From contig NC_052474.1 of assembly GCF_009730915.1 (NCBI RefSeq), positions 5,181,501-5,245,500 on the forward strand: a stretch of DNA of 64,000 nucleotides, given 5' to 3'. Of the stretch, positions 3,390 to 57,140 are shown in pieces. Every line of letters starts with the position of its first letter. Within the stretch, counting starts at the first letter, position 1. The DNA is from Dioscorea cayenensis subsp. rotundata (lineage: Eukaryota > Streptophyta > Magnoliopsida > Dioscoreales > Dioscoreaceae). Position numbers and translations under genes: made by a program. A model generated the notes under the pieces. That model was given only the letters and a program-made list of their open reading frames with translations. It was not told the origin of the DNA and did no database searches.

Positions 3390-3690
3390 GTTCTTGTTCT
3401 TGGAGATAGATTAGATTAGATTAGAGGTTGGCAGGGTGTTGCGTCTTGATGCGGGAGTGCAGTGAATGATTGGTCTGGTGACTTACTTTATGTATGTGGT
3501 CCACATCATAATGATGACGAAATGGGATTGTATTTGTTAGCATTGTACCACTGTCACACTATCAATGATGCTTCACAAACTCAAAGGGCAGCCTATTTTA
3601 TGTGTAAATTTTATGACACTAGATAATTTGTATGATTTTTTTCGATTGAAAAAGAAATCATATATAATATAATATTATTGGAGAAGGACT
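3390..3690. other. F-box gene upstream region
   Basis: This is probably the promoter and leader of the minus-strand F-box gene. A direct repeat of ATTAG units lies at about 3411-3424. No other element is recognised. Confidence 0.4.
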
Positions 3691-25495: not shown

Positions 25496-25547
25496 CTCTT
25501 CTTCTTCTTCTTCTTCTTCTTCTTCTCTCTCTCTCTCTCTCTCTCTG
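25496..25547. repeat. CTT/CT pyrimidine repeat in kinase gene leader
   Basis: A run of CTT units followed by a run of CT units, ending about 10 bases before the kinase ATG. Such tracts (GAGA/CT-type) are common in plant core promoters and leaders. Being a microsatellite, it is likely variable in length. Confidence 0.85.
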
Positions 25548-25556
25548 GTTTCCGCC

Positions 25557-37775: not shown

Positions 37776-37794
37776 TATTATATATAAATATATA

Positions 37795-38020
37795 TAATAT
37801 TAGTAACTATAGTTTTTAATTTGTAAACCGGTGGCAACGCGGATACTTGCGGTTATGCACAGGACCTGCTCGTTGGTGGGTTCTTTTTTTAATTAATTAA
37901 TTATTATTTTACTCGATTAATCACCTGTAATTCCCGCCCTTTTGCTAATTTTATGATATAAATAATGTGAACTTTTGTTTAAAAATCAGAGTAATCCCAT
38001 ATTTACTCTGAGATAAGCTT
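37795..38020 (+). promoter_or_regulatory. shared TCX promoter module, copy 1
   Basis: This segment is alike in front of TCX copies 1, 2 and 4. In order it contains TAGTAACTATAGTTTT, a TTGCGGTTATG-like part, TTCCCGCCC (37931-37939, an E2F-like core), GCTAATTTTATGATATAA, and AAATCAGAGTAATCCCATA. In this copy CAGAGTAA (37987-37994) and TTACTCTG (38003-38010) form a perfect 8-bp inverted repeat with an 8-bp loop. The ATG is about 350 bases further on. Confidence 0.6.
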
Positions 38021-38360
38021 GAGTGCCTGTAGAATTTTAAATTTATCCGAACTACAAATCGGAATTAGATCGCAAAAATTGGATGTCCCTCAGCCTGCAT
38101 ACATAAATTCACAGGCAGATCACAAAAGAATAGCAAAAACAGAAGCAGAAGTTTTATTGATACTCAACTTTCTTTGTATCATCAAGATCTTGAAAAACCT
38201 CGCTGGCTTGTGCAACTGCTTTTTAGTTCTGGCTTTCTTCTTTAGTCTTACCTTGTTTTGTTTGTTTTGTTTCTTTGTGTGCTAATTGCTTAGTTTTACC
38301 TTTTTTTTTTCGTCTTAATAAATTAGCTACTTGGTTGCTCTTTTTTTCAAAACATAAGCT

Positions 38361-40212
38361 ATGGAGCACCCGAACAATCTCAACAACAACAACAGCCAAG
38401 TAGGCATCTACCTCTGTTCTTTTGCTATCCTTTTTTTTAATTGGAACAATAACATGTTGAAATTTAGGTTTTTTTTTTTTAACTTGATAGGATGATGGAG
38501 GTGGCATGCACAGAAAAAGATCAGTTTCTGCTGATTTGGATGAACTCCCAAAACAACAGAAAACATCTGGATTTCCACCTATTCAACTTGGTCATGGACC
38601 TTATGGTATTAACATCAATCAACAAAGATACTCAGACCATCAGCTTGGACCAAAATTAAAAGTTTCACAAAACAATCTCACAAGAAATAATAATTTGCTT
38701 CACGGTTCGGTTTATCCGTCACATGTGCGACAACAGGCACTTGGATTATCTCAGTTTTCAGGATCAGGGTCTAACTTTGGTTTCATAAAAAATTCAGAAA
38801 ATCCAAGCAGTAATAATGGTGGTGAATCCAGCAGACAAAGGTGCAGGCATCTTGCTTTCACTTCACATTTGGGTTATCTTTTTCTCACTTTAATTTTTAC
38901 AATCTAACTATTACTGTATAGAGAAAATTCTGAAGGTCCTAAGGGCAAAGGTTGCAAGAGGTGCAATTGCAAAAAAACAAAATGCTTGAATTTGTGAGTG
39001 TTTATTACTTAAATGATGCATCAAATCATGTTTTTCATGTCTTGACCTGTTTTGGTTATATTTCTTATGTTCTTTCTTGTTTAACAGATACTGTTACTGT
39101 TATTTAAGCAAACAATATTGTAGTGTAGATTGTAAATGCCAAGACTGTGAAAATATTGTTGACAATGAACATGGGGTAACTGCTGCCCAAAACGTGTTGT
39201 TGGCAAGCAATCCAACCGCATTTGGTCCTAAGATCATTGGAGATGAACATAGGAAAGGATGCACTTGCAAGAACTCCAGTTGCGAGAAAGGATATTGTGA
39301 TTGCAAGGCGGTAGTTTTTTATTTTCTTTTCTTCTTCTCTTTCCCTTTTCATTCGTCTTTCTAATTGTGACATTTCATTCATTGTTTGTTCTTGAAGAAC
39401 AATGTCAAATGTACCGTTAAGTGCAGGTGCATAAACTGCAAGAATCCTTGTGGTGCCAGAGGTAATAAGGAAAACTTGTAACTGTATAAGCTATCAATAT
39501 CTTGAAGCATAATTATATAACAGCACTTTCTGACTTCAAAACTGATGTGCAGATTATGGAGAAATTGCAGTACCTGGAGAAACGAACATTCAAGCAGAAC
39601 AGGATAATATGACAGCAACTTTGCCGGTGGGACTGCACCCGCTGCCTCAACAACAGCCGGCACCAAAGTAAGTATGTTGCCTGTATTTCCATAGGCACAA
39701 GAGTAGCAATTTCTTTATCTTCGGAAATTTAAATTGTTGTTTTAATTGTAACTCAAGCTACAGCTATGGAAGTATGGGAAATAGTGAGAATCAATTGCGT
39801 CATGCTTCTCTGCCTGCAAGGTGGGAAACATTTCTAGCATCTCAGCGTCAGCACTTTCCCTCAAAGTACACAAGTTATATGAAAATTATCATCTTTAAAA
39901 ATCAAGAACTTCATCTAATCTTTCTTGTCTTGTTTTTCCATAGTTCACATCATCCTTCTGTCAACAATAGAGTAGATTCTGCCAGAATGATGCAAGGTTC
40001 ACAGGGATTCTCAAAGTAAGAATATATATCTCATATTCATATTCATGGCTTGTTAATTCTTTTGTTTCTACAATGCTCCCTTAAAACAACAACATAGATC
40101 GCCTATACATGTAAAATTTCTTCAGGATCATTTAATCTTCAGAAAAATTTAGATCTTTGAAAAAAAATTTCTTTGTTTTTTGTACAGCATAAATGCTCCC
40201 TCAAAACAACAA

Positions 40213-40257
<45 letters not shown>
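38361..40257 (+). CDS. TCX copy 1: CXC/CRC-domain protein with poly-Gln tail, 368 aa
   Basis: Nine exons: 38361-38399, 38491-38840, 38922-38993, 39088-39310, 39398-39461, 39553-39667, 39764-39865, 39944-40015 and 40188-40257; phases agree. The N-terminus is Asn-rich (MEHPNNLNNNNSQ). The CRC domain lies at about 141-245: CXC1 has all nine Cys (C-x-C-x4-C-x3-YC-x-C-x6-C-x3-C-x-C-x2-C), the linker has NPTAFGPKI, and CXC2 is also complete (GCTCKNSSCEKGYCDC, then CTVKCRCINC). Such domains bind three zinc ions each and read TTTGAA-like (CHR) DNA in TSO1 and LIN54/DREAM-type proteins. The C-terminus is 16 Gln (three CAA, thirteen CAG). An exon present in copies 2-4 between the last two is absent here. 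Nuclear DNA binding is inferred from the family. Confidence 0.83.
40216..40254 (+). repeat. CAG repeat coding for poly-Gln
   Basis: Thirteen uninterrupted CAG codons after three CAA codons, immediately before the stop of TCX copy 1. A pure repeat is likely to vary in length. Confidence 0.9.
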
Positions 40258-41430
40258 TACAGGGTGGTCTCCATGTCAAATTCTCAGTCACTAACCGAAC
40301 TGAGACTGGATGATTCCTCATCACCTCAACAATCTGACAATGTTTCAATTTCTTAGTGAAGACCAGGAAAAACAGAATGAATGAAGTTTAGTTATTATTG
40401 TTATTAGTATTATCATTATTATGGGATATGTTGGTTTTGTAATTTTATTTATGATGAGTAGTACTTGAAAATTAGATTTTTTTTTTTTCTGTATATTGAA
40501 ATTGTGGTTTTTATAAGTTTAATTCCTCAATTAGTCTCTCTAATATAATTTGTCTTTTATTTTTTATTATTATTTTAATTTAGTAATGTCAGAGGGTTGG
40601 TTTTTCATTTGATTTTACAGACGGGTATTTTTAAATAAAAATATTATTAAGAAAAAGGGGAAAAAAAGGTGTTGCAACATTCGGATTTTTAAAAATTCAA
40701 AACAAAAATAAAATAAGGGTTAAATGTCTTAATCGATTGGTTATTGTGACAGTGACACCCTATATTATAAATATACAGTAAAATCTTAATAAATAAATAT
40801 TAGATAAATTAACAACCTGAATTAAATGATTTTTTTTAGTCCCAATTTGGGTGAATGAGTTAAATTAATAATTTTTGTAAATGTATAAGATGATAATTTT
40901 TTCAAAACTCTTTAGGGCATAATGAAAATATAAATTAATAGTTCATTTAATACATTGAAAAAAAATATATACTATTTTACTACTTGTATTTACATTCAAA
41001 TATACTTAAAATTTTGCGTTACACTTCATCTTTTAGCCATTAAATTGAAAACTATATTCGAAATATGCTTATGATTTATATACAATAGTTAAACTATGCT
41101 CATAGTCATTTCCAAAATTTTATTATTATTATTATTATTATTATTGTTATGTGAATGTAGAACTTGGTTATGATTTTTTAAATTCTTATAAAATTTTTGA
41201 ACTCATTTCTTATTTTTAAATTTTGATTAAAAAATACAGAAAGTTTCTCCACAAGTTATTATTTATGTGTGCATAGACTCTTAAAATTAATAAATATTTA
41301 TTGATAAATTAATAAATTATACATTTATTGATAAATAAATAATTTTTATAAAATAATTTTTTTTTTTGGGTCTCAAAAGTATTATCTTACAGAGAATTTA
41401 GTGTGTGTATTATATATAATGTTTTCATTG
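40258..41430. other. spacer between TCX copies 1 and 2
   Basis: The first about 250 bases resemble the 3' regions of the other copies and are probably 3' untranslated sequence. The remainder is very AT-rich, with a TTA-type run near 41121-41146. No gene is seen. Confidence 0.5.
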
Positions 41431-42290
41431 TGAATCTTTTATAAATATATATATAAATTTATACATCCTAGTGACTATAGTTTTCATAAAGCCAATACTA
41501 GAGTGTACTAGTTGCGGACCTGTGGTTCTGTGCAGCACCTAGTAACTGTTTTTTTTTCTTTCAATATATAATTTCTAGCCGGGTAAATTCCCATAATACC
41601 CCGCCCATCTGCTAGTTTATCATAGGGGTGGCAATAATCTGTCCGGACCCGCCGGCCCGGTTTTGTCCGGCCCGGAATAAAAAGGGTTTGGACATAAGGT
41701 TTCTAGTAACGCGTACGGGTCCGGACATGGGCTCAGTTGTCCGGATTTAAATCCCGGGTCGAGTCCCGGATATAGAAATCTGGACAATCGCTACTTTTTA
41801 ACCCCTAAAACTTTAAAAAGCTCACAACCTTGGGTCCCATTTGTTTTAAAGGGCTTATTCTTCTAAAAAAACTTTAAACATATATTGTTTTTTCTATTAA
41901 GACTTAGATTTTTTTCTATAATTTGAGTTGAGTTTTGGATTATTGATGTTTTTGCATTTAATGTGAATTAAATTATTTTTTTGTATAATTTAATATTTGA
42001 GCGAACTTTAAAAATAGAGTTATAGAATTCGAGACAATTTGGACATCCCGGACAACCCGGTTTTAAAATAAACCCGGGTTTGGACATGCTAAGTTTGTCC
42101 GGATTTCAAAATCGGCCGGGTTCGGACACAAGTTTTTCTATTTATATTAGTAGTTGTCTGAACCCGGTTTTGTCCGGACCCGAATTTTTGCCACCCCTAG
42201 TTTATCATATAGATAACGTGGACATTAGTGTAAAAACAGAGTAATCCGCTATATATACCCTGAGATATATAAGCTTGACTTAAATTGGAC
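41431..42290 (+). promoter_or_regulatory. shared TCX promoter module, copy 2, split by a MITE
   Basis: The same module as before copies 1 and 4: CCTAGTGACTATAGTTTT near 41468, CCCGCCC at 41600-41606, GCTAGTTTATCA, then AAAAACAGAGTAATCC and a TATATATA box at 42250-42257, about 95 bases before the ATG. A 577-bp hAT-type MITE splits it between CCCGCCC and the TATA box. Confidence 0.6.
41623..42199. mobile_element. hAT-type MITE with 8-bp target duplication
   Basis: Terminal inverted repeats are TAGGGGTGGCAA and TTGCCACCCCTA. The flanks are an exact 8-bp target duplication, GTTTATCA (41615-41622 and 42200-42207). The homologous site in copy 4 is intact and unoccupied (GCTAGTTTATCATATAG), which proves insertion. 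Subterminal regions carry many GTCCGG and CCCGG motifs in both orientations, usual for hAT elements. It is 577 bp with no transposase frame, so it is non-autonomous. Confidence 0.9.
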
Positions 42291-42352
42291 GTCCTTCTTC
42301 ATGCTCACATAACTCTGCAAGCAGATCACAGACGAGAAACCAAAAACACACC

Positions 42353-44106
42353 ATGAATGACCCGAACAACCCCAACAACAAGAACAACAACAAGAACAAC
42401 CAAGTAAGCATTTACCTCTGTTCTTTTACTAACTCTTTTTTTTTTTTTTTCTTAATGCATGGAACAGTATCATGTTGAAATTAAGTTTGTTTCTTGATTT
42501 GATAGGATGATAGAGGTGACAAGCTGGGAAAAAGATCAGTTCCTGCTGATTTGGATGGACCCTCACAGCCACAGAAAAAGTTCAGATTTCTACCTACTCA
42601 TCTTGGTTTTGATGTTGATGTCAATCAAGAGATATACTCAGGCCATCAGCTCGGATCAAATTTCACACAAGACATGCAAATGGCGTCAAGCTTTAGAAAA
42701 ATCAATCCCACAAGCAATATAAGTAATTTGATTCATGGTTGGGGTAGTTCTCCAACAAATGTGTCACAAAGTGGGTATAGATTTTATCAAATTCCAATAT
42801 CAGAGCCTAAATCTGAAAATCCAAGAAATGATGATCTTGTTGAATCAAGAAGACAAGGGTGAGTGCATCTTGCTTTCACTTCACATTTTATCATTATGAT
42901 TATTAATTTTCTAATGTAACTATTACTATACAGGAAGAAGCAAGGTTCCAAGGATAACAGTTGTGAAAAACAAAGTTGCTTGAGTCTGTGAGTGTTTATT
43001 ACTTAAATGTCTTTTGTGTCTTGACCTGTTTTGATTATATTTCTTATGTTCTTTACTGTTTAACAGATACTGTGAATGTTTTGCAAGCCAACTATATTGT
43101 CTAAATTGTGAATGCTCAAACTGTGAAAATACTGTTGACAATGAACATGAGGTAGCTGCTCTCCACAAGGAGTTGCTGGAAAAAAATCCAATTGTATTTG
43201 ATTCCAAGAATTTTGCAGAGCAACATAAGAAAGGATGCACTTGCAAGAACTCCTGTAATTGTATAAGTTATCAAGATCTTTGAAGCATATCAACAGCATT
43301 TTCTAACTCCAGAATTGGTGTGCATATGCAGGTATTATAGTTTCTTCAGAAGTGAAGACTCAAGCAGAACAGGATAATATGCAAGTAGATGTGCCGGTGA
43401 ACAAGTATGTTCCTGTATTTCCATAGGCACAATATTAATTAGAGAATTATACAAAGTATACAAATCATGAAATTTTATTATCTTAAAAATTTAATAACTT
43501 CATCTGATTTTTCTTTTCTTGTTTTTTCATAGTTCATATCATCCTCCTATCAACAGTGGACAAGGTTATGATATTAGGATGATGCAAGGTTTACAGGGAC
43601 ACTCAAAGTAAGAACATCATCTCATATCCACCATATTCATGACAATTTGAATTTTTCATTTAATCTACCAGATCAATGGAGATTTTTGTCTGAAGATTCT
43701 TTTGTTTCTACTCAGTTTCCATGATTCCCAGTTCAACAACAACAATAGCTGGAGAAGTTTCACATTGATGAATGAGAGCATTGAAACAAACTATGGTACA
43801 CTGCCAGTGGAATTGCATGCTATTGCAACTCTGAACGCTCAGCCATTCACTCCGTATGCAGAAAACGTACCCAATTTGTAAGAATAGATCTCCTTCATAT
43901 TCATGTTACATTTCTTTAGGATCATTTAGTCTTCAGAATTAATTTAGATCTTTGTTAAAATTTTAATTTCTTTGTTTTTGCACAGATTTTTAACTCTCTC
44001 AAGCAAAAACAACAACAACAGCAGCAGATGCAGCAACAACAACAATAACAATAACAACAACAACAATAATAATAAAGAGTGGCCTTCATCTGAATCACCT
44101 CACTGA
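42353..44106 (+). CDS. TCX copy 2: CXC protein with reduced second CXC and poly-Asn tail, 358 aa
   Basis: Eight exons: 42353-42403, 42506-42858, 42934-42987, 43067-43254, 43332-43404, 43533-43607, 43716-43877 and 43986-44106; phases agree. The N-terminus is Asn/Lys-rich (MNDPNNPNNKNNNKNNQ). CXC1 lacks its first Cys (DNSCEKQSC where copy 1 has RCNCKKTKC) but keeps LYCECF. The linker NPIVFDSKN is altered. CXC2 stops after GCTCKNSC: a deletion joined the start of the CXC2 exon to the following intron and removed the next exon. A new donor (T|GTAATTG) keeps the frame. Without splicing there, a stop follows 17 codons later. The exon equal to copy 1 exon 7 is also missing. The tail has 13 Asn in a row, then KEWPSSESPH. 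DNA binding is probably weak or lost. It could be a pseudogene, but every junction is in frame. Confidence 0.68.
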
Positions 44107-45490
44107 AACAAGTTCTGGATAATTCCTCATCACCGCAATTAGCAGACTATATATGTTTCAAGTGCTTCATGGAGACCATAATTGGTTGTACATTTTTGGA
44201 AACAAGAGACTGAACAAAATTTAGTTTGTCGTCGTTGTTTTTCTTGTTGTTGTTACTTTTCTTTTTTCTGTTTTTATTTTTTTTTTTCTCTATTTTAAAT
44301 GTAGATAAAACACAGATTTTATCTAAGAACAAAAATGGGTACGTACAGATATATAGCCAAGTTTGGTTGAATTATCAAAGGGCGCTAAGAACCATGCATG
44401 CTCTCAAGGAAAAAAACACCCCTTGTGATTACGAGATATATATATATATATATTTTATATATATAAAAAAGAATAAATCATATTCAATTAAAAAATTACG
44501 GGGAGAAAACTCTTAATTTTTTTTATGAAGCTTAGAATTAATATCAAGTGGTTTTAAAATTTTATTTATTATAAATAGTATTCAGAAATGACAATTTCTT
44601 TTAGACATATTGAAATTGTTTTTTTATATCCTTCAACAGTTATGTTAAATCTTAGCATATTCTAACGCTTAACTTAAACTTAATTTTATGAACCTAATAA
44701 TATTCAACGTCAAGAAAACAGTGGAACTAATTGGTAAAAAAAGATAAGATAATTATTTGAATTACTATCTAATCCTTTAAATATTTGGGATTTATACAAT
44801 TGTATCTTCTGAGAATAGGGCTTTGTTGGAAGGATGAAAGTAATAACTGCATTTTATTTTGCATGTCATCTTCTTATGTTTTTGTTATTCTATAAAAAAG
44901 TCAATGCTAATTGTCCAGATTAATGCAACCATATGGTTAAATTTAAAAGTAAGATCAGTGGATACTCTCTCTCCTGTTATACTACCTAAGCCCCTTATTT
45001 CCACACTATAAGAACCCCCCACACACACACACACACACACACTATAATTTAGTTTTTATCTTTTATTTTATCTCGATTATTTTTCTAAGTAGTTTTATTT
45101 TGTTGGCTTGTAATTGTTATCTGAATTTTTTTTTAAATTTGTGATTTATTTATTTTTTAAATATTAGTTTAAAATTCAAAACAGAACGCAGGTAATAAAA
45201 AAAAAATATATCAATATATATCTTGAGATGGAAAATTTTGGACAAAATAATATTGTGGAGATCAATTCGGGAAATCATGACTAGATCATTGTGCCGACAA
45301 GAGGATAAGATAATTAATCTTTGAGTAATTATCTAATTAATTAAATATCTTTGAATCTTAATTTAAAAATTCAAAGAAGACCACAAGAATGGATCTTTTT
45401 ATCCATGTCCTGTGCTTATGAATTTTATATATATATATATATATATATTGAGAAACTTTTCTATTTTTTCTTAAAAAAAAAGTATTAAGA
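44107..45490. other. spacer between TCX copies 2 and 3
   Basis: The first part is a 3' region shared with other copies. The rest is AT-rich, with a CA run at 45020-45042 and a TA run at 45427-45448. The shared promoter module is not found here. No other gene is seen. Confidence 0.5.
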
Positions 45491-45498
45491 TAACCAAG

Positions 45499-45731
45499 AT
45501 GACGCAGCAGACCGCAGGGAGTGAACTGGTACTCCAATTTCTTTTCATTTAACTAGTGAATTTTTTTAATGTGATTAATGTTTTTTAAACTAAACTATTT
45601 TACCTGATAATAATTAAATATAAAATTAGTTTAAGATGGTGATATTATTCGAGAGAAAAATCAAACTGTGCGTTATTGTTGTTGTTTTTATGTTTTTTTT
45701 TAGTTTTAAAAATAATTAATATGAATAAGTC

Positions 45732-45762
<31 letters not shown>

Positions 45763-48298
45763 TCTCGATTATGTTTTTAGATGAGAGTTCCACTTGATTT
45801 TAGTATTAAAGTTAATGAGATTATCACTCTTCTATTGGCGTGATTTAATCAAAATCTATGCTTTAATTAATGTCGTCGTTTATTTATATTATCATAAAAA
45901 AGGAAAAAGCTAAAAATACTACCATAAACTGAAAGTCTATCTGATTCACACAAATAACTTTTTGTTATTTTTTATTTTTTATTATTATGTTATTTACTTT
46001 TAGTTTGTTTTTCTTTTTTAACGTTCTCCAAAATTTAGTGAACTCCCAGTATCTGTTCTTTTGTTGTTTGTCTTTTAGAATTTTGTGTTGTATTGTTGTT
46101 ATCTTAATTAATTTAATTTATTAAAAAAAAATCTTAACCTTTTTGATTTAAGGTTGACGGAAACAATGGCGGTGACAGAGAAAACTTTATGAACGGTAGC
46201 AACAGTGAAGATATAAGCAATAGGTTGGTGTTTAATACGTTTTTACGTGTATGTTTATTCTTAATTAATTTATTTACTTATATCTCTTTTTAATCTCTAG
46301 ATTAAACCAAAAGCCAGAAAAGAACACACCAGATAGTAAAAAAGAATGTTGCACTTGCAAGAAGACAAAATGCTTGAAACTGTTGAGTATCTTTCTGTGT
46401 AATTTCTAGACTTCATATTTGCTTGAAGTTGTGCTTTAGTATTTTAATCTTTTCATTTGTATTTCATCAGTTACTGTGAGTGCTTTAAAAGGCAAGAACG
46501 CTGCAAAGATTGCAAATGCACAGATTGCAGAAATACTGATCAATATATAGATGAAGTGCTTGCCACCGTAAATACAATAAAGGCTCACAATCCGAATGCA
46601 TTTTTGCCTAAAGTTATCCAAGGAGAAAATAGAACTGTTAGAGATGACATGGTAATGGCACTACTGCTTCTTTTAAAAGCACTACTGCTTCACAATCAAT
46701 TTATGAACATTTATTTTGTTGATAATTGTTATAATATATATTAATAAATGTTTACAAATCAAGTTACTATGGTTGTTATAAGACATAACATATATGTTTT
46801 TTATTATTACACATCAGCCATGCATGGAGAGTGTTGAACCTTCAACCTCCTGTATAAAAATCAAATATCTTAACCGCTTGCTAATTACTGCAATGGCTCA
46901 AATCACATTATCTACAGTTATATTTAAAAAATAATAATATTAGATAAACACATATGAGTTTACAGGGAAATTTGCATACGGTGCAAGGACCAGCAATGCA
47001 TAGAAATGGATGCAAATGCAAGAAGTCTCAATGTTCAAAAGCATACTGTGTTTGTTTACAGGTTAGTCATATATGCACTAGCTAGTACATATATATTGAT
47101 AATTCCTTGTATGATTAATTAAGTTTTTCTGTTTTTTTTTTTTTTCTTTTTCAACTTGGTTATCATTAATTTTTCACATTTTTACTATGAAGGCTGGTGT
47201 TGGCTGCTTGAATTGTGAATGTCAAGACTGTAATAACCCTCGTGGAGCAAAAGGTAATAACAAAATTCAGAAAATTAATATCCACATGTTTTATATCAAC
47301 AGCCTTTTCTAATTAACTCCATAACTGATGTTCATATGGAGAAATTATAGTACCTTCAGAAGTGAAAACTGAAGCAGAAGAGGATCATATGTTAGCAAAT
47401 GCGCCGGTCAGACAACATCTGCAGGCTGGACAACAGCCGGTACAAATGGCAACACAAAACCCAAAGTAAGTATGTTGCCTGTATTTCCATAGGCATAAGT
47501 ATTGCAATTCTTTTATGTTAGTGAGAGTTTAAACAGTCTTCTTGTAATTACTCAATCTACTACAACGTAACCTGCAAAGTATGGGAAACAGTGAGAATCA
47601 GCAAATGAGTTATGCTTCTCCGCGCGCAAAGTTGGAAACATTTCGAGTATCTCAGCATCTGCTCCTTCTCCATGGCAATACACCACAACCCCCAAAGTAT
47701 ATATATACAAGAGTTATGAAATTTTATTATCTTAAACAAAAAAATTAATAACTTTATCTGATCTTTCTTTTCTTGTTTTTCTATAGCTTATATCTTCCTT
47801 CTATTAACGGTCAACTAGTTTATGCTAGAATGGCGCAAGGTGTACCGGGAGCCATAAAGTAAGAGCATCTGATCAATTCATGACCATTGGAAGTTTTTTC
47901 TTTTTCTCTTTTTAATCTACAGAAATGGAGATATTTGTCTGATTCTTTTGTTTCTACTCAGTTTGAGTGCTTCTGTGTTCAACAACAGCAGCAATGGTGC
48001 ATTAAGAAGTGAGAGCAATGAAAGAGAACATGATACGCTGCCAGTGAGAGTGCAAGCTAATGAAATTCTGAACACTCAGAACCTCACTCCATTTCCAGGA
48101 AACGTACCCAATTAGTAAGAATAGATCTCTTATACATGTTACACTTTTTCATGATCATTTTATCTTCAGAATTTAAATCTTTATTTTATTATATTTATTT
48201 ATTTGCACAGCTTAACTGCTCCCTCAGACAACAACAGCATCAAGTGCCATCAACAACAACAACAACAACAACAACAACACCAACAACAGCAACAGTAA
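45499..48298 (+). CDS. TCX copy 3: complete CXC/CRC protein with poly-Gln tail, about 354 aa
   Basis: Ten well-supported exons: 46153-46223, 46301-46381, 46471-46651, 46966-47061, 47193-47253, 47351-47465, 47580-47696, 47787-47858, 47962-48114 and 48211-48298. A first exon at 45499-45528 (MTQQTAGSEL) fits by phase but is uncertain. Its N-terminal exon is much shorter than in the other copies and unlike them. CXC1 is complete (CCTCKKTKCLKLYCECF), the linker has NPNAFLPKV, and CXC2 is complete and the most canonical (GCKCKKSQCSKAYCVC, then AGVGCLNCECQDC). An extra intron splits linker and CXC2. The C-terminus ends with Gln9-His-Gln5. By family it should bind CHR-like DNA in the nucleus. It is probably the least altered DNA-binding member of the array. 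Confidence 0.78.
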
Positions 48299-48420
48299 TA
48301 TAGGGTGGCCCTCATTTCAGTCACCTGTACCGAACCTGGACTAGGTTTTGGATAATTCAAATGCTTAGTGAGGACCATTGAGTTTACATCTATGGAAAAA
48401 AGACAATGAACGAAGTTTAG

Positions 48421-48470
<50 letters not shown>

Positions 48471-48945
48471 CCGTTGGTTTTATTTCAAAAAAAAAAAAAA
48501 TACCGTTGGTTTCTAAATGTTAGTTATGATGAATAGATGAATAGTATTTGAAAATGACAGATTTTTCTCTCACATTGAATTAGTTTTTTCTAACTTTGAA
48601 AGTTGTGCGAACTCTGTAACAATTTTTTATTTATTTATTTTTAGAAGTAGATTAACATATTCGGATATTTACCTTAATTTATTAAACCAATATGTAATTA
48701 ATATAAAGAAACGAATATAACTGATTGATAAAAACATAAAATAATTATAATTATTTGAATTTTCTCATTTATTAAATATTTGACATTTACTTATATGTTT
48801 TGTAATTTGTTTCTATTTAAAAAATGAATCACATTCATTTCAGAAACTAAATATAGTATATAGTGTTATTGAAGAAGTATGATTGGTGTGAAGTATAAAA
48901 GATAGAAACAAAATAACAAGAAAAATGTGTGTGTGTGGTTGGGGG
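48299..48945. other. 3' region of TCX copy 3 and spacer
   Basis: Probable 3' untranslated sequence with a TTA repeat at 48424-48470, then AT-rich spacer. No gene is seen. Confidence 0.5.
48424..48470. repeat. TTA trinucleotide microsatellite
   Basis: About 15 TTA units in the 3' region of TCX copy 3. Confidence 0.9.
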
Positions 48946-49226
48946 CAAAGTTGTATTTAACTATAAAAGTAGCATGTAGTCAATTTTCAAGATACCTGAA
49001 TAATGTGGTAGAAAGAATTAAATATGTGTGCATTTTGTTCAAGCCAAATAGTTTGCATAGGCTCTAGGAACTCTAGATTACATTTTAAAATAGCAATGCT
49101 ATCATTTTATTTTTTTTTCAAAGTTGTATTTAACTATAAAAATAGCATGTAGTCAATTTTCAAGATACCTGAATAATGTGGTAGAAAGAATTAAATATGT
49201 GCGCATTCTGTTCAAGCCAAATAGTT
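48946..49226. repeat. direct 108-bp duplication at the LINE end
   Basis: 48946-49053 and 49119-49226 match over 108 bases with about three substitutions; offset is 173. A 65-base unrelated piece lies between them. Confidence 0.88.
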
Positions 49227-50039
49227 CATTTAATAGCACGAGCTAAAAAGACCCTAATCTCTTTAAGCTGAGAGGTCATGAAATTCCTTTAAAAGTTTAG
49301 GCCATAACTCCTTCAATGAGCTTAGAAAGAGACTAAGCTGAAACAACTGAGCAAAATAACTCCAAATCTACTCAACATAAGGGCACAGTAGGATCAAATG
49401 CTCAATCAATTTTCACCTTGGGTAACAAAGCACACACATCATTGTTGGTAAGTTGTTACACTTTCTTCTAGACAAATGTTTTAAGTGTAAGAATCATCTT
49501 GTCCCACATTAGCCAATAAAAAAAATTAGTTTTATGCTGATAAAGACTCTTTAAGATGATTTAAATCACTGGACAAGATACACCCCTTTCATTTAGAAAT
49601 CTATAGAAAAATTAGATATCCTAGGTTGTTAATGTTTGATCCTAACCATAGAATGTCTCTATGAACACTATTGATGTTTTTTATTACCTAGCGGAGAAGC
49701 TTTAATATGGACATCTAATAGGTAGAAATAGATGAAAGGACCGAATTGACAAGTGTAAAGCGGCTTCAAGCAATAGGAATCTGGACTTTTAGGCAGAAAG
49801 TTGTGCTTGGATTTCAGAGGTCAGATGTTCTCAGTCTTAATGTCGAGGCCTCCTGCTAGAGATGGGGACCTTAGGTACATAAGGGGAAGAAAGTCATTCG
49901 AATAATCAAGAGTTGGGACAGAACCAGGGTCAATCAATTGGCCTATAATGGAGGAGATCAAACATGTTTTTTAGAAGTTAATTGACAAGCCTGACATACC
50001 CTCGAACATGTAAAGGATGAGTTTAGTGATCCTTAGATC

Positions 50040-50583
50040 TACCGGTGTAGGAATGAAATGATCATATCACAGTCAAAGGAGAATGAATGCAACACACTCA
50101 CAAACAAGCAAACAAGCAAGAAGACAATACACACTCAATTTTATATGGAAAACCCTACAAAATGAGGGAAAAACCATGGGAGACTGCAAGCAAAATTCCA
50201 CTAGTCATAGAGAGAACAACTACACAACCAATCTCAAGTTGATGCTCTAACTTGAGATTACAATTACAAGAAGATTAAACAAAAGAAACTGAACATGTAT
50301 GCATGCTCAGTGAACACTCTTGCAATTGAGAAGCTTACCTAAGTCTTCTTGAAGATGAGATCTCTGAGTCATGATTGCAGAAAAACCAATCTTCTTCTTT
50401 TTGTTTTGTTCTCCCTTTTTCCCCCAAGCTCTCTATCTCCTTGTTTCACCCCCTTTTTCTTTTGAAAGTGAGTGATAAAGAGCCCTCAAATGGAAAATCC
50501 AAAAATGCCCTTCACTAACTTAGACATGTCAACAGATGCTTCTAATCATGGGTTGGACCTAGTAACATACTTGCTACCTAACA
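50040..50583 (-). mobile_element. solo LTR-like fossil, probably Copia, nested in the LINE
   Basis: A 544-bp block interrupts the LINE. On the minus strand it starts TGTTAGGTAG and ends CCTACACCGGTA. It is flanked by an exact 5-bp repeat, AGATC (50035-50039 and 50584-50588), the size left by LTR-element integration. No internal region is seen, so it looks like the single LTR remaining after LTR-LTR recombination. It is younger than the LINE it sits in; with one LTR no divergence date can be given. Confidence 0.7.
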
Positions 50584-51404
50584 AGATCCTCATTACCACC
50601 ATTGGTCAAAATAAGAAAGTCATCAACATATAAGATGTGACACATCTTATCCCATACCCCAAGTGGGATACCATATAAGATCCCAGAATTTAGAGTATGG
50701 TTGAACATCATGCTTAGTACATCAATGACTAAGATAAAGAGTAATGAAGGAAATTAAAAGAGGGCCCCTTTACCTTAGTCTTCGGTGATATCAATTACAT
50801 AACCACTTTATGCACCATTCACCAATATGGTAGCCTTAGAGGACTTTAGAATGGTCCTGATCCATCAAATCCAACGTGAACCGAATCCCTGGCCATCCAA
50901 GAGATCCAATAAAAAGTCTCAGTCTACCATATTGAAAGCTTTTGAAAGTCAACCTTCATAATATTGTCAAAGATTCTGCGTTTTTGGAGACTAAAGATTA
51001 GTGTAGCAATGTTGTCCAAAATATAATGTAAGGCCAATTGAGCAATGCCAATCATGGAATCAATAACCATACTCAACCAAGTAACCAAGATTTTCTAGAT
51101 AATTTTGAATTGGCCAGAAAAAAAAAAAAAGAAAAAGTTTAAAAACGATGTTTAGTAAATATTCTAGAGTATTAGTTTAAACATGGCAAAATATTAAAAA
51201 TAAAAATAAAAAATTATAATGAGCAATTTTATTTTTCTGTGCACCTCTTCCACCAACTGATTTACAAACTTTTATCATCCCAATTTTGCTTTTATATATA
51301 TATATATATATATATATACAATTTCTCTTCTTTTTTCTTACTCTTCTTATTATTTTATATCCTGGTTTTGCTTTTATTTAATATAATTATGATTTATGTA
51401 ATTT

Positions 51405-51660
51405 ATCAATATATATACAATATAAATATATACAATCTAGTAACTATAGTTTTTATGAAGTAAACCATTGCTCGCGTGTACCAGTGGCGGTTATGTACAA
51501 GACCTTGTAAGTGTTTTATTATTTCCAATACCCGGATAATTTCCAATACCCGCCCGTTTGCTAGTTTATCATATAGATACTGTGAACCATTAGTTTAAAA
51601 ACAGAGTAACTCCCTATATATTTGCTCTCAGCGAGATTGAATTATATTGGATGTCCTTCT
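51405..51660 (+). promoter_or_regulatory. shared TCX promoter module, copy 4
   Basis: It carries CTAGTAACTATAGTTTTT, GGCGGTTATGTACA, CCCGCCC at 51549-51555, GCTAGTTTATCATATAG (the uninterrupted MITE target site), AAAAACAGAGTAAC and a TATATAT box at 51615-51621, about 95 bases before the ATG. The order is the same as in front of copies 1 and 2. Confidence 0.6.
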
Positions 51661-51712
51661 TCATGGTTTCTTAACTCTGCAGGCAATCACACAAGAGAAA
51701 CGAAAATAAGCC

Positions 51713-54357
51713 ATGAATCACCCAAACAACTTCAAGAACAACAACATCACCAGCCAAGTAAGTATCTACCTATGTTCTTTTACTAGTTCTCTCTTTTTTT
51801 TTAATGGAACAATAACATGATGAAATTAAGTTTGTTTCTTGATTTGATAGGACGATAGAGGTGACAAGCTGGGAAAAAGATCAGTTCTTGCTGATTGGGA
51901 TTGGAATGGACCCTCACAACCACACAAGCCATTTCAATTTCTACCTACTCAACTTGGTTATGGTGTTGATGTCAATCAAGAGATATCCTCATGCAATCAG
52001 CTTGGATCAAATTTCACACAAGACATGCAAATGGCGTCAAGCTTTAGACAAATCAATCCCACAGACAATAGTAATTTGATTCATGCTTGGGGTTCTCCAT
52101 TAGACGTGTCACAAGGTGTGTTTGGATCATCTCAAATTCCAATATCAGAGCCTAACGCAGAAAGTTCAACAAATAATGGTCTTGTTGAATTTGGTTATGG
52201 TGTTGATGTCAATCAAGAGAGATCCTCATGCAATCATCTTGGATCAAATTTCTCACAAGACATGCTAATGACGTCAAGCTTTGGAAAAATCAATCTCACA
52301 GACAATAGTAATTTGATTCATGCTTGGGGTTCTCCATTAGACTTGTCACAAGGTGTGTTTGGATCATCTGAAATTCCAAGATCAGAGCCTACTGCAGAAA
52401 ATTCAAGAAATAATGGTCTTGTTGAATTTGGTTATGGTGTTGATGTCAATCAAGAGAGATCCTCATGCAATCAGCTTGGATCAAATTTCACACAAGACAT
52501 GCAAATGGCGTCAAGCTTTAGACAAATCAATCCCACAGACAATAGTAATTTGATTCATGCTTGGGGTTCTCCATTAGACTTAACACAACATGCGTTTGGA
52601 TCATCTCAAATTCCAAGATCAGAGCCTAAAGGAGAAAATTCAAGAAATAATGGTGTTGTTGAATCAAGAAAACAAGGGTGTGTACTTTTGCTTTTACTTC
52701 TCATTTGGATTGTTTTATTATTATTATTCTAATCTAATTATTACTGTATAGGCAAATGCCTGAAGGTTTCAAGCGTTGCACTTGCCAAAAATCAAGATGC
52801 TTGAATCTGTGAGTGTTTATTACTTAACTGTCTATTGTGTCTTGACCTGTTTTGCTTATATATCTTATGTTCTTTCCTGTTCAACAGACGCTGTGAATGC
52901 TTTGCAAAGAAAGAATTTTGTGTAAATTGTCAATGCAAAAACTGTGAAAATACCATTGCAAATGCACAAAGTGTAGCTGCTGCCCAAAAGCATTTGTTGC
53001 ATCTCAATCCAACTGCATTTCATCCTAAGATTATTGGAGATGTACATACGCAAGGATGCGCTTGCAAGAGCACCTCTTGCTCCAAAAAATATTGTCGATG
53101 CAAGGCGGTAATTTTCTGATCTTCATTTCTTCTTCTTTTTCCTTTTTCATTCTTCTTTCCAATTCTGACATTTTCATGCATTGTTTGTTCTTGAAGCACA
53201 ATGTTAAATGTACCAATAAGTGTAGGTGTATAAACTGCAAAAATACTTTGGGTGCCAAAGGTAATAAGGAAAACTTGTGACAGTATAAGCTATCAATATC
53301 TTGAAGCATATTAACAGCACTTTCTAACTCCAAAACTGATGTGCCGATTATGGAGAAATTGCAGTACCTGGAGAAATGAGCACTCAATCAGAACAGGATA
53401 ATACGGCAGCAAATGTACCGGTGGGACAACAGCCGCTGTCTCAACAACAGCCGGTACAGGGGCCAACACAAAGTCCAAAGTAAGTATGTTGGTTGTATTT
53501 TTCCATAGGCACAAGAGTAGCTATTCTTATCTTTTTGGGAATTTAAATTGTTGTTTTGTAACTCAAGCTACAGCTACGGAAGTATGGGAAATACTGAGAA
53601 TCAACTAAAGTGTCATGCTACTCTGCCAGCATATTTGGGAAAATTTCAAGCATCTCAGCCTCAGCACTTTCCCTCAAAGTATAAAAGTTATGAAATTTTA
53701 TTATCTTTAAAAATTAAGAACTTCATCTGATCTTTCTTGTCTTGTATTTTTCACAGTTCATATCATCCTTCTATCAACGATAGAGTAGATTCTGATAGAG
53801 TGATGCAAGGTTCACAGGAATTTCCCAAGTAAGAGCATGAACATCCCATATCCATCCATCTCGATTCATAACCTTTGTAATTTTTTTTATAATCTACACA
53901 AATTGAGATAATTGTCTGATTCTTTTGTTTGTACTCAGTTTACATTATTCCATGTTCAACAACAACAGCATCAGAAGTAGTCCATTGACCAGTTTACATT
54001 ATTCCATGTTCAACAACAACAGCATCAGAAGTAGTCCATTGACCAATGAGAGCAGCGAAACAAACCATGGTACACTGCCAGTGGATGTGCATGCTAATGA
54101 AACTCTGGGCACTCAGCAACTCGCTGCATCTGCAGAAAATTTATCCTATGAGTGAGAATAGATCTCTTAGATATACATGTTACATTTCTTCAGGAAGTGG
54201 ACAGTGGCTTGTCCACTTTGTCTTAAAAAGAAAAAAAAAAAAACACTTCAGGATCATTTAATCTTCAGAATTAATTTAGATCTTTGTTAAAATATAATTT
54301 TCTTTGTTTTTGCAGCTCTTTTGCTACCTCAAACAACAGCAACAGCAACAACAATAA

Positions 54358-54395
<38 letters not shown>

Positions 54396-54409
54396 GTAAT
54401 AAAGGGTGA
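51713..54409 (+). CDS. TCX copy 4: large CXC protein with triplicated N-terminal unit and poly-Asn tail, 603 aa
   Basis: Ten exons: 51713-51757, 51851-52677, 52752-52808, 52888-53107, 53197-53260, 53365-53479, 53574-53678, 53757-53828, 53939-54151 and 54316-54409; phases agree. The N-terminus is Asn-rich (MNHPNNFKNNN). Exon 2 holds three tandem 79-residue units (about residues 50-286), each with GYGVDVNQE, SSF, DNSNLIHAWGSPLD and FGSS. CXC1 keeps all nine Cys but reads CLNLRCECF: Arg311 replaces the Tyr that is conserved in the family and contacts DNA in LIN54. The linker NPTAFHPKI and CXC2 (GCACKSTSCSKKYCRC, then CTNKCRCINC) are intact. Exon 6 uses an in-frame AG 18 bases downstream of the site used in copy 1. 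Exon 9 holds an exact 54-bp duplication. The tail ends Asn12-SNKG. Confidence 0.82.
51956..52666 (+). repeat. three tandem 237-bp coding units in TCX copy 4 exon 2
   Basis: The same landmark (GGTTATGGTGTTGATG) starts at 51956, 52193 and 52430, an exact period of 237 bases (79 codons), so the frame is kept. Copies 1 and 2 have a single related unit. Units 1 and 3 are closer to each other in places than to unit 2 (QLGSNFTQDMQMASSFRQ against HLGSNFSQDMLMTSSFGK). Confidence 0.93.
53939..54046 (+). repeat. exact 54-bp tandem duplication in TCX copy 4 exon 9
   Basis: Two adjacent 54-base units code twice for SLHYSMFNNNSIRSSPLT (the first Ser codon is completed or replaced at the splice junction). 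They are identical, so the duplication is recent. Confidence 0.9.
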
Positions 54410-55550
54410 CTCTCATTTCAGTCACCTGGACCAATTTCTGGATGATTCCTCATCTCCTAAATTAGCAGACTATGTTTGAAATGCTTAATGAATACCATTG
54501 ATTGTACATTTTTGGAAACAAGAGAATGAACAAAGTTTAGATGATATTGTTGTCTTTTTTTTTTTTGTGGGATTTGTGAATAAATTAAACACATATTCAA
54601 TGGAAAATTTGGAAGAACAAAGACCGGTGCAGATAACAAGAGGAGGAAGGGGCACCAAAGACTTATAGAGATTAAAGTTAAACAACCATGCAAAAGTTAA
54701 GCGGGTTCAGTCCATTCCCACGCAAGCTGACGCAATGCAATCAACTCCCATTCCAGTTGAACAAGTGCAGCCGGATGCCCAACGCGTTGATTTCGGTGCA
54801 ACCAGCCCAACTATCATATCTCCTACTATTGCCGTGCCAGTTAACCAGATCCAATACCAAACACTTGATCATGGTGCGCCCAGATCAAGGGCTTGGGCTC
54901 TGATTCGAAGCATTTGAATTCGGCTCCTCTTGATCCAGCTCATATCTGGAGACGGGACTAATCATGATACTTTAATATTGTTTTCAAGCTCCGAGTCTCC
55001 GGGTTCATCCCAGTTGAATGGAGAAGTAATCAGTCCATGTGAATCCTAAATCCTGAATCATGAATCCTGAATCATGAATCCAGACGTAGACAAAAATCTT
55101 GTTACTCTCCTTGTAATGATTCAAAGTGTAAGGGACGGCTCACGACCATAGTTCCACATAGCCTATGAGAGCCAATCCCTCTAGTTTTATATACGACCAT
55201 AGTTTCACATAGCCTATGAGAGCCAATCCCTCTAGTCTTATATACCCATATCAAATCTTCTCTGTAACTCAGTTTATGGAGAAGTTAGGGTGGTGGGTCT
55301 CTATATTAACACAAAGTACAACCTCAAGGAGAGTATTCATCCGGGACGGCTAGATTTTTTATTTTTTTTTAATGAGAATAACAGGCGATTATATATATCA
55401 AGGGTTGTGTGCACGGACTGGGAATTAATCATTCAATCTGAATACCCTCAACCGGGGTGTGATTTACTTGTAGTCCTAGAACCAAATTTTAAAATTAGGT
55501 CTTTAATTTATTTAGTAAAATCTATTTTTTATTTAAATTTTTTAACAAAT
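54410..55550. other. TCX copy 4 3' region and unidentified coding-like fragment
   Basis: 54410-54680 resembles the 3' regions of the other copies. At 54690-54917 the composition changes and a Pro/Gln-rich open stretch can be read (for example TPIPVEQVQPDAQRVDFGA), ending in a stop. I do not recognise it; it may be a fragment of a LINE ORF1 or a captured gene piece. A 51-bp tandem repeat follows. Confidence 0.4.
55142..55243. repeat. two-copy tandem repeat, 51-bp unit
   Basis: Units 55142-55192 and 55193-55243 share ACGACCATAGTT and CACATAGCCTATGAGAGCC, with very few differences. Confidence 0.88.
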
Positions 55551-55551
55551 A

Positions 55552-55704
55552 TTTTTTTTGCCAAGATGAGCGGTTAGGCCTCCAAGAAAGGCAGGAGCGT
55601 GCACAAATCTCGGCAAAGCAAATGGGGATTGGGCATGGACACACATGGACACTGGAACTATCCGTACACAACAACTACTCACACTCCAAGAAAAAAATTA
55701 GTAT
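55552..55704 (-). mobile_element. SINE, copy B, 5'-truncated
   Basis: On the minus strand the body reads TTGGAGTGTGAGTAG, then GTGTACGGATAGTTCCAGTG, then TCCATGTG, and ends CCGCTCATCTTGGC with an A tail. It matches the bodies and 3' ends of the copies near 13.2 and 61.5 kb. The tRNA-like head is absent. Confidence 0.6.
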
Positions 55705-56238
55705 TTTTTAACAAATACTTATTTGTGATGTTATTTTTTTTTATATAATTACTATTACTGTTATCATTAAAATAGATATATTTTAAATTTACAAGTAAAT
55801 GTTAGAAATAAAGATAAAATATATCAATATAAGCAAATTTAATTTTTTTTATAATTAAAAAATTTGTAGATTATCTCATAGGAGTGCCCGGTATTTAAAA
55901 TTGGTAATAAAAGATAGGAAAAAGAATTTTAAAAAATTAGTTGAAAGAAGATATATAATTGATTAAATATTAAATTAAAATATTTTTATGCATTGATTTA
56001 CTGGTTTAAATTTAAAAAAATAGTTGAAATTATATTATATTAATTTAATATTGATTATTAAAAAATCAATATGTTAATTTATTATAATAAATAATTATTT
56101 AAGAACCTCTCAAATTTTGGGGTCTACCCGATGTTTTCTATGTTGTTGTTGTGTTTTCGTTTTTTAAAATAATAACAGTGATTTATCCATTTTATTAAAA
56201 ATTGGGGTCTAAAACAATGTTTTAGTGATCTTAACTTT

Positions 56239-57140
56239 AGCATCTAGATTTGGATGAACCCTCAAAACTACAGAAAACATCTAGATTTCAACCTATGCAA
56301 CTTGGTTATGGTGTTAACATCAATCAACCTAGATCCTCAAACTATCAGCTTGGATCAAATTTCACACAAAAAGGGCAACTCCTATCAAACTTTGGACAAA
56401 TCAATCTCATATTCATAAGCAATAATAATGTGATTCACAATTGAGGTTCTCCATCATGTGTACCAGAATGTATATGGACTATCTCAAATTTGAAGATCAG
56501 AGTATAAAAGGTGCAGGCATCTTTTGTTCACTTCACATTTGAGTTTTTTTTTTCCCTTATTTTAACTTTTTATCTAACTATTACTGCATAGGAAGAAGCC
56601 TGAAGGTCCCAGTGTTAGAGCTCACAAGAATTGCAATGGCAGAAAAACAGGATGCTTGAATTTATGAGTGTTTATTAAATGATGCATCAAATTAATCATG
56701 TCTTTTGTGTCTTGACCTGTTTTGTTGCCTATATTTCCATAGGCTCAAGTGGTGCACTTCTTTTCTCTTCCAGGATCTAAATCATCGTTTTCTAACTCAA
56801 TGCAGCAACTTAAGTATGAGAAACAGTGAAATCGAGGAATGAAATATTCATATAGCAGCTGTTGCAACTCAATTGTGGTGGTGCTCTCAGTTTACATGCT
56901 TCCTTGTTCAACAACAGCAACTTAAGTATGAAAAAAAATTTCCCTACAGTGACAAATGACAATGGTATGATGCAAGTTCAATTACTTGGACTGTGGCATG
57001 ATTATAATCCTTCAGGTATGGACTTTTTAAATCCTCAGAGAGTTCTTAAAAGTGAAACTATAATTTCTGATGAAGAGAGAAAACTACAGGCTCTAGTTGA
57101 GCATATTCAGAAAAATCAAAGTAATTTTCTTGTGAAGTAA
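56239..57140 (+). pseudogene. TCX copy 5: decayed fragment
   Basis: Pieces of TCX exons lie in order. 56243-56445 matches exon 2 (LDEPSKLQKTSRFQPMQLGY), ending in a stop. 56592-56668 matches the CXC1 exon with lost Cys (NCNGRKTGC) and a stop. The CRC exons are missing, replaced by a jump to intron sequence near 56725. 56805-56850 matches the exon that starts SMGNSEN in other copies, and 56887-56930 matches the FNNNS exon. From there an open frame runs to 57140, with a 3' part (VQLLGLWHDYNPSGMDFL and on) unlike the other copies. No promoter module precedes it. Loss of both CXC motifs makes a working TCX protein very unlikely. Confidence 0.75.

What the first reader, a model, noticed from the sequence alone, without database searches (positions are those of the whole stretch)
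37795..57140. Fast-evolving tandem array of five CXC/CRC-domain (TCX) genes
Seen: four copies with full sets of in-frame exons and one decayed copy, all on one strand in about 19 kb, sharing exon order, phases and (copies 1, 2, 4) a promoter module. Known: CRC proteins (TSO1, TCX5/6, LIN54) are few per plant genome and control cell-cycle and cell-fate genes. Inference: a lineage-specific cluster with altered DNA-binding domains and prion-like tails is unusual for this family and could be a group of modified cell-cycle or germline regulators.
Basis: partly seen in the sequence, partly recalled or inferred. Interest (0 to 1): 0.85.

Follow-up and report, generated by a model that had tools for sequence, protein, structure and literature searches.

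The report
Fast-diverging tandem TSO1-type gene array
A plant genome carries a local cluster of duplicated relatives of TSO1, a normally conserved cell-division regulator, and in the copies that still look intact the DNA-binding part is changing faster than neighbouring non-coding DNA, which suggests that natural selection is remodelling what it binds.

Summary
The array is real. Five one-strand copies of a CRC (tesmin/TSO1-like) gene lie at 37.8-57.1 kb, but only C1 and C4 have both CXC domains and a recognisable start. C2 lost a Cys and most of CXC2, C3 has no clear first exon, C5 is a remnant. A CXC2 intron places the array with TSO1-type genes. The 584-Mb genome also holds ordinary TSO1-like and TCX5-like loci, a pseudogene copy on C18 and dispersed fragments.

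The surprise is the rate pattern. Between C1 and C4, indels in exons 1-8 all keep frame (9 of 9; the last exon does not) and all 18 zinc Cys are kept, yet CRC exons differ about twice as much as flanking introns (81/341 versus 42/326, p=3e-4). CRC dN/dS exceeds 1 for all three C1/C2/C4 pairs. A neutral control (C2 versus the C18 copy) shows no exon-intron difference. C4 has Arg at the first minor-groove Tyr; that substitution abolishes LIN54 binding (PMC4974476). C3 is a mosaic.

I read it as a TSO1-type array whose intact members diversify adaptively. Expression, function and occurrence in other plants are untested.

The parts
38361..40257 (+). C1: CRC gene, 9 exons (38361-38399, 38491-38840, 38922-38993, 39088-39310, 39398-39461, 39553-39667, 39764-39865, 39944-40015, 40188-40257), 368 aa (362 if exon 6 starts at the downstream AG), complete ORF, two CXC with 9+9 Cys and both groove Tyr; poly-Gln end
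   Evidence: all internal splice sites GT/AG; PF03638 E 7.9e-17
42353..43283 (+). C2: truncated copy; exons 42353-42403, 42506-42858, 42934-42987, 43067-43283; CXC1 8 of 9 Cys, CXC2 mostly deleted; DNA similarity to tail exons of C4 continues to about 44.2 kb
   Evidence: (PF03638 E 9.4e-8, one stretch)
46153..48298 (+). C3: mosaic copy; exons 46153-46223, 46301-46381, 46471-46651, 46966-47061, 47193-47253, 47351-47465, 47580-47696, 47787-47858, 47962-48114, 48211-48298; no certain start codon; both CXC with 9+9 Cys and both groove Tyr; extra linker intron
   Evidence: (E 1.7e-18)
47280..47310 (+). C3 mosaic breakpoint (approximate): upstream 39-65% identical to C1/C4 per 100-nt bin, downstream 61-87%
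   Evidence: sliding identity
51713..54409 (+). C4: CRC gene, 10 exons (51713-51757, 51851-52677, 52752-52808, 52888-53107, 53197-53260, 53365-53479, 53574-53678, 53757-53828, 53939-54151, 54316-54409), 603 aa; CXC1 groove Tyr is Arg; Asn-rich end
   Evidence: (E 1.4e-15, scanned with a shorter last exon and 6 extra residues at exon 6)
51951..52664 (+). 79-aa (237-nt) unit present three times inside C4 exon 2
   Evidence: (family D2, 93-94% identity)
53345..53364 (+). C4 exon-6 acceptor region: CG where C1 has an upstream AG; the downstream AG at 53363-53364 is in frame and has a counterpart in all four copies
56240..57140 (+). C5: remnant with parts of exons 2 and 3; the CRC exon 4 and its neighbours are missing
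   Evidence: (D1, D14, D15, D18)
37782..38012 (+). upstream block of C1 similar to C4 51420-51631 (68.7%); part (37950-38022) also to C2 42201-42278 (78.5%)
51402..51706 (+). upstream blocks of C4 similar to C2 41438-41624 (68.9%) and 42197-42345 (78.3%)

Best explanation
A tandem array of TSO1-type CRC (TCX) genes. Shown: C1 and C4 have largely stayed protein-coding since they split (frame-keeping indels in exons 1-8, all 18 zinc Cys kept), while the remaining CRC residues and the N-terminal exon changed as fast as or faster than non-coding DNA; C2 and C5 have decayed; C3 is a mosaic of a diverged CRC half and the array's tail. Inferred: the intact members are nuclear zinc proteins with altered DNA recognition. 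C1 keeps both minor-groove tyrosines on a changed surface and may still read CHR-like A/T half-sites. C4 has the same Tyr-to-Arg change that abolishes LIN54 binding when made in its first CXC domain, and probably no longer binds CHR in the canonical way. Acting where TSO1-type genes act (meristem, flower, gametophyte), such proteins would either bind new sites or interfere with canonical TSO1-type partners, as the Arabidopsis tso1-1 and tso1-2 CXC missense alleles do. The rate pattern fits positive selection, possibly from genetic conflict.
For: Family: PF03638 in 4 of 4 models; only PDB match at E up to 1 is LIN54 5fd3, E 1.4e-14, C3 CRC as query; phase-0 intron after YCxCxx in CXC2 shared by C1, C3, C4 and TSO1-like C8, absent from TCX5-like C5; no LxCxE in 4 of 4 models. 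Coding kept: C1/C4 gaps in exons 1-8 are multiples of 3 in 9 of 9, in introns 1-7 in 3 of 12 (Fisher p=0.001); 18 of 18 CXC Cys kept; 0 of 5000 neutral substitution runs at the intron distance kept all Cys with no stop. Acceleration: C1/C4 exons 1-8 76.0% versus introns 1-7 87.2% identical (p=3e-8); CRC exons 81/341 versus flanking introns 42/344 different, p=9.5e-5; leaving out 18 intron bases that may be exon gives 42/326, p=3e-4, and with splice signals also trimmed 33/234, p=0.005. CRC dN/dS 1.24, 2.07, 2.55 for C1-C4, C1-C2, C2-C4, above 1 by NG86, LWL85 and ML in all three pairs. Control: C2 versus C18 copy, exons 91.4%, introns 92.2%, p=0.67. Function: LIN54 Tyr536 or Tyr610 to Arg lost binding (PMC4974476, passages); tso1-1/tso1-2 Cys missense alleles are antimorphic and tso1-1 interferes with SOL2 (PMC3207858, passages).
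Against: The whole-CRC C1-C4 dN/dS is not significant by bootstrap (P=0.228); dropping Cys codons gives 1.71, P=0.044, a post hoc though structurally defined choice. The two significant pairs (P 0.029, 0.006) involve the truncated C2 and only 76 codons. C1-C4 tail exons look neutral (0.95). The last exon of C1 and C4 differs by a frame-shifting 1-nt gap. CRC comparisons with C3 give 0.34-0.55. Introns may be constrained or homogenised by conversion. Two of five copies are clearly decayed. No transcript, protein, population or other-species data. The antimorph/new-target step is inference.
Confidence: 0.55

Rival explanations
1. A decaying array under relaxed constraint: copies are non-essential duplicates drifting to pseudogenes, and the apparent dN/dS above 1 is small-sample noise plus unusually conserved introns.
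For: C2 truncated and C5 a remnant; C18 copy broken; last exon out of frame between C1 and C4; C1-C4 whole-CRC bootstrap P=0.228 and tail dN/dS 0.95.
Against: All 9 C1/C4 indels in exons 1-8 keep frame and all 18 Cys are kept; CRC exon excess over introns p=9.5e-5, or 3e-4 to 0.005 with stricter introns; a neutral pair shows no excess.
Confidence: 0.27
2. The exon excess comes from recombination: gene conversion or shuffling of CRC tracts from diverged paralogues (as seen in C3) rather than point-mutation adaptation.
For: C3 is plainly mosaic: CRC dS 0.98-1.35 against the others but tail dS 0.22-0.27 against C1 and C4. CRC NG dS between C1 and C4 (0.23) is above the intron distance of 0.133.
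Against: By LWL85, YN00 and ML the C1-C4 CRC dS is 0.13-0.22, nearer the intron level; imported diverged tracts would raise dS as much as dN; no nearer donor was listed in two protein searches of the genome.
Confidence: 0.13
3. Tissue-restricted TSO1 paralogues under ordinary subfunctionalisation, with no conflict and no dominant-negative action.
For: TSO1 and SOL1 are close neighbours in Arabidopsis, and SOL1 was not redundant with TSO1 (PMC3207858); C1 and C3 keep both groove Tyr and all 18 Cys.
Against: Subfunctionalisation alone predicts dN/dS below 1 in the DNA-binding domain; three plant CPP surveys report whole-gene values below 1.
Confidence: 0.2

Closest known systems
TSO1-type TCX genes (Arabidopsis TSO1, SOL1/TCX3, SOL2/TCX2; here C8, C15a and C17 loci)
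   Same: Two CXC motifs, NPxAFxPK hinge, CLKL/YCxC intron and the CXC2 phase-0 intron, no LxCxE; a linked pair is known, TSO1 and SOL1 1545 bp apart with one gene between (PMC3207858, passages)
   Different: Long stem of C1/C2/C4 (2.59 versus 0.03-0.4 for canonical TSO1-like tips), CRC dN/dS above 1 among them, no linker intron and a shorter linker in C1/C2/C4, C4 Tyr to Arg, no RRCLDF pattern, array of five
LIN54 (5fd3), TCX5/TCX6
   Same: CXC signature with nine Cys per motif
   Different: No LxCxE RBR1 motif (motif from PMC8500230); Asn526/Asn600 and Lys534 equivalents partly replaced; CXC2 intron present, absent in TCX5-like C5
tso1-1 and tso1-2 antimorphic alleles
   Same: CXC residue changed in an otherwise present protein; C2 lacks a CXC1 Cys, C4 a DNA-contact Tyr
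   Different: Laboratory alleles of TSO1 itself; the array copies are separate loci and their activity is unknown (PMC3207858, passages)
Drosophila Tombola in tMAC (germline relative of Mip120)
   Same: Idea of a diverged CRC paralogue beside a conserved one; recalled, only a search listing and starts of abstracts seen
   Different: Single gene in a defined testis complex (recalled); no such complex shown here

Membership tests
CRC / TCX (tesmin/TSO1-like, PF03638) | Pfam TCR match above curated cut-off | tested here: met
   4 of 4 hand models, two stretches in C1, C3 and C4, one in C2; C5 not scanned
CRC / TCX (tesmin/TSO1-like, PF03638) | Two CXC motifs with nine Cys each | tested here: met
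   met in C1, C3, C4; not met in C2 (8 Cys, CXC2 mostly deleted) and C5
CRC / TCX (tesmin/TSO1-like, PF03638) | Hinge with NPxAFxPK | tested here: met
   C1 NPTAFGPK, C3 NPNAFLPK, C4 NPTAFHPK; C2 NPIVFDSK altered
CRC / TCX (tesmin/TSO1-like, PF03638) | Minor-groove Tyr in both CXC (LIN54 Y536, Y610) | tested here: inconclusive
   Both in C1 and C3; C4 has Arg in CXC1 and Tyr in CXC2; C2 has only the CXC1 Tyr (residues from PMC4974476)
TSO1-type TCX | Intron inside CXC2 after YCxCxx, phase 0 | tested here: met
   C1, C3, C4 and C8 share it; C5 (TCX5-like) reads through
TSO1-type TCX | Conserved C-terminal RRCLDF motif (recalled) | tested here: not met
   pattern absent in 4 of 4 models; the motif itself is from memory and was not checked in C8/C15a/C17
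TCX5/TCX6 (type 2, DREAM LIN54) | LxCxE RBR1-binding motif | tested here: not met
   absent in 4 of 4 models; motif from PMC8500230
TSO1-type TCX | CHR (TTYRAA) DNA binding | not testable with these tools
   needs protein and DNA-binding assay
TSO1-type TCX | Expression in dividing or reproductive tissue | not testable with these tools
   no RNA data held

The most novel reading that the evidence does not exclude
The array is an arms-race locus: intact copies are natural antimorphs or retargeted rivals of the conserved TSO1-type regulators, with the zinc scaffold frozen and the DNA-contact surface, first groove tyrosine included, under positive selection, for example in a gametophyte or endosperm conflict.
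Probability: 0.2. Interest if true: 0.88.

Novelty: new variant of a known kind. Interest (0 to 1): 0.6.

Why it matters
CRC proteins are conserved cell-cycle and cell-fate regulators. Of six plant CPP-family surveys opened here by word search, three give Ka/Ks values in the passages seen, all below 1: Theaceae (mean 0.32, no tandem duplicates, though clusters 1-2 Mb wide), peanut (maximum 0.696, one tandem pair) and soybean. Those are whole-gene values. A locus where the scaffold is frozen but the rest of the DNA-binding domain runs ahead of introns, and which carries a substitution already shown to remove LIN54 binding, would make it testable whether a core cell-cycle DNA-binding domain can be drawn into an arms race or a new target set.

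Tried and rejected
Rejected: 'four complete copies' (C2, C3 and C5 do not qualify). Rejected: plain neutral drift of every copy, because indels in C1/C4 exons 1-8 keep frame and zinc Cys are kept and a neutral pair behaves differently; partial decay stays a rival. Rejected: TCX5/6-type membership (no LxCxE, CXC2 intron present). Not found: a nearer donor for the C3 CRC; after itself the best of 12 listed matches were C1 and C4 (44% and 41%), then TSO1-like loci. Withdrawn on checking: that C4's exon-6 acceptor is damaged; the downstream AG is in all four copies. Led nowhere: codon-model omega from IQ-TREE was not printed; YN00 failed for two of three pairs; a candidate first exon for C3 at 45499 is only a guess. 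Species not identified. The 11-row tree has long branches, so only the C1/C2/C4 clade (99/99) is used; C5, the C18 copy and the other C15 fragments were left out of it.
Full report
OBSERVATION. Reading the window and repeats gives five same-strand copies, called C1 to C5. Hand gene models: C1 38361-40257, nine exons, 368 aa, internal introns GT-AG, complete. C4 51713-54409, ten exons, 603 aa. C2 42353-43283 ends in a truncated CXC2 and has no exon 5. C3 46153-48298 has both CXC motifs but no certain start. C5 56240-57140 is a remnant without the CRC exon 4. At exon 6 my C1 model uses an upstream AG that C4 and C3 lack, but all four copies have a further AG at the same place downstream (in frame, 18 nt on, in C1 and C4), probably the normal acceptor. 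Pfam PF03638 matches 4 of 4 models (E 7.9e-17, 9.4e-8, 1.7e-18, 1.4e-15). The only PDB sequence match at E up to 1 is LIN54 5fd3 (E 1.4e-14, query C3 CRC).

GENOME CONTEXT. The window is G000:C4:5181501-5245500 in a 584-Mb, 2249-contig genome. With the C1 exon-4 protein, 14 matches were listed at E up to 10: four in the array; the rest at C5, C1509, C17, C8, C15 (three places), C18 (two) and C3 (one, with a stop). From the fetched loci, C8, C15a (5.975 Mb) and C17 look TSO1-like, C5 and C1509 TCX5-like (class names recalled). C15 also holds a second group at about 5.988-5.992 Mb: one divergent CXC set with His and Ser in place of the groove tyrosines, plus fragments. The array and TSO1-like C8 share a phase-0 intron inside CXC2, which C5 lacks; no array model has LxCxE.

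C3 IS A MOSAIC. In 100-nt bins C3 is 39-65% identical to C1 or C4 up to about 47.3 kb and 61-87% after it. CRC dS to the other copies is 0.98-1.35, tail dS to C1 and C4 0.22-0.27. Its exon-4 protein has no nearer listed relative in the genome than C1 and C4. Either an older array member had its 3' half homogenised, or a lost paralogue donated the 5' half.

RATES. C1 versus C4: exons 1-8 754/992 identical, introns 1-7 524/601 (the aligner left a 456-nt gap for C4's extra exon-2 repeats), p=3e-8. CRC exons 3-5 differ at 81/341 sites, introns 2-5 at 42/344, p=9.5e-5, or 34/252, p=0.002, with splice signals trimmed. Leaving out 18 bases that my C1 model counts as exon: 42/326, p=3e-4; trimmed 33/234, p=0.005. 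Gaps in exons 1-8 are multiples of three in 9 of 9, in introns in 3 of 12. Against this, the last exon carries a 1-nt frame-shifting gap: C1 reads Gln, C4 Asn, with different stops. Nei-Gojobori CRC dN/dS: C1-C4 1.24 (bootstrap P 0.228), C1-C2 2.07 (0.029), C2-C4 2.55 (0.006); against C3 0.34-0.55. Tail: C1-C4 0.95, C1-C3 1.39, C4-C3 1.64. N-terminal exons: C1-C2 1.42 (0.116), C1-C4 1.64 (0.045), C2-C4 1.07 (0.421). NG86, LWL85 and ML give values above 1 in the CRC for all three pairs, lowest 1.09 (C1-C4, NG86). All 18 CXC Cys are kept between C1 and C4; non-Cys codons give 1.71 (P 0.044 against pS, 0 of 5000 resamplings against introns). Simulated neutral substitution of C1 at the intron distance kept all Cys in 0.2% and avoided stops in 0.14% of 5000 runs, both in none. 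Control: C2 against its C18 copy, which carries a 1.29-kb insert in exon 2 and a 1-nt frameshift in exon 4: exons 672/735 (91.4%), introns 413/448 (92.2%), p=0.67.

DNA CONTACTS. PMC4974476 (passages) reports that LIN54 Tyr536 and Tyr610 insert in the minor groove and that Ala, Phe or Arg at either removes binding in vitro. In the alignment C1 and C3 keep both Tyr; C4 has Arg at the first and Tyr at the second. The Asn526/Asn600 positions are Asn/Thr in C1, Thr/Lys in C3, Thr/Ala in C4. Lys534 is Asn in C1 and C4, Lys in C3. That these changes alter recognition is inference.

TREE. Eleven CRC rows: C1/C2/C4 form one clade (99/99) on a stem of 2.59; canonical TSO1-like tips are 0.03-0.4. C3 and the divergent C15 copy fall with TSO1-like rows on very long branches, so their placement is unsure; C1/C2/C4 fall on the LIN54/TCX5-like side (87/93, not starred, long branches flagged), at odds with the intron evidence.

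MECHANISM. Shown: family, TSO1-type CXC2 intron, conserved zinc ligands, accelerated non-Cys change. Inferred: altered or lost CHR binding and interference with, or retargeting relative to, canonical TSO1-type proteins. Precedent: tso1-1 and tso1-2 change a conserved Cys in CXC2 and CXC1 and act antimorphically, tso1-1 interfering with SOL2 (PMC3207858, passages). In Arabidopsis eight LIN54 homologues are listed and only TCX5/6 were found with DREAM (PMC8500230, passages).

LITERATURE ON NOVELTY. Seven library searches; nine papers opened by word search only, six of them CPP surveys. Theaceae: no tandem duplicates, mean Ka/Ks 0.32, clusters 1-2 Mb wide that the authors call possible relics of tandem duplication. 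Peanut: one tandem pair, maximum 0.696. Soybean below 1. Wheat/rice/Arabidopsis: segmental pairs. Brassica: whole-genome and transposed duplication. Phoebe: clusters possibly tandem. I saw no array of this kind in those passages; papers outside the library were not searched.

LIMITS. No expression, population or other-plant genome data; small codon numbers (76-108); post hoc exclusion of Cys codons; intron neutrality assumed.

Noticed in passing
G000:C18:16283766-16286268 (L027): Near-complete C2-like copy sharing C2's CXC2 deletion, broken by a 1.29-kb insert in exon 2 and a frameshift in exon 4.
   Followed up: yes
C12:13.14M, C11:8.41M, C1:13.37M, C1:9.93M (L050-L053); C17:17.27M, C16:11.55M, C165 (L054, L056, L057), C174 (not fetched): Dispersed pieces of the array genes (exons 7-9 or exon 10, intron parts included) lie inside longer repeated units: L054/L056/L057 share 2.6-4.3 kb at 92-95%, L052/L053 several kb at 87-93%. 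A Transpos_assoc domain lies in L057, outside the shared stretch. They look like transposon-carried gene fragments; the elements were not classified.
   Followed up: partly
G000:C15:5984000-5993900 (L026), about 5.988-5.992 Mb: Second cluster of divergent or broken CRC pieces about 12 kb from a canonical TSO1-like gene; one set has His and Ser at the groove-tyrosine positions.
   Followed up: partly
about 41624-42198: C2's upstream region is interrupted by about 570 nt with inverted ends AGGGGTGGCAA...TTGCCACCCCT and a short repeated flank, like a small hAT-type element (read; the name is recalled).
   Followed up: no
51951-52664: 79-aa unit in C4 exon 2 is tripled; between units dN/dS is 2.5-4.2 on few changes.
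   Followed up: partly
2289-3410 (-), 21098-21433 (-), 25443-27941 (+), 32439-33377 (+), 58097-58375 (-): Neighbouring genes: F-box/kelch and DUF1644 above cut-off; JAB/MPN, PB1 and carboxylesterase-like matches below cut-off.
   Followed up: partly
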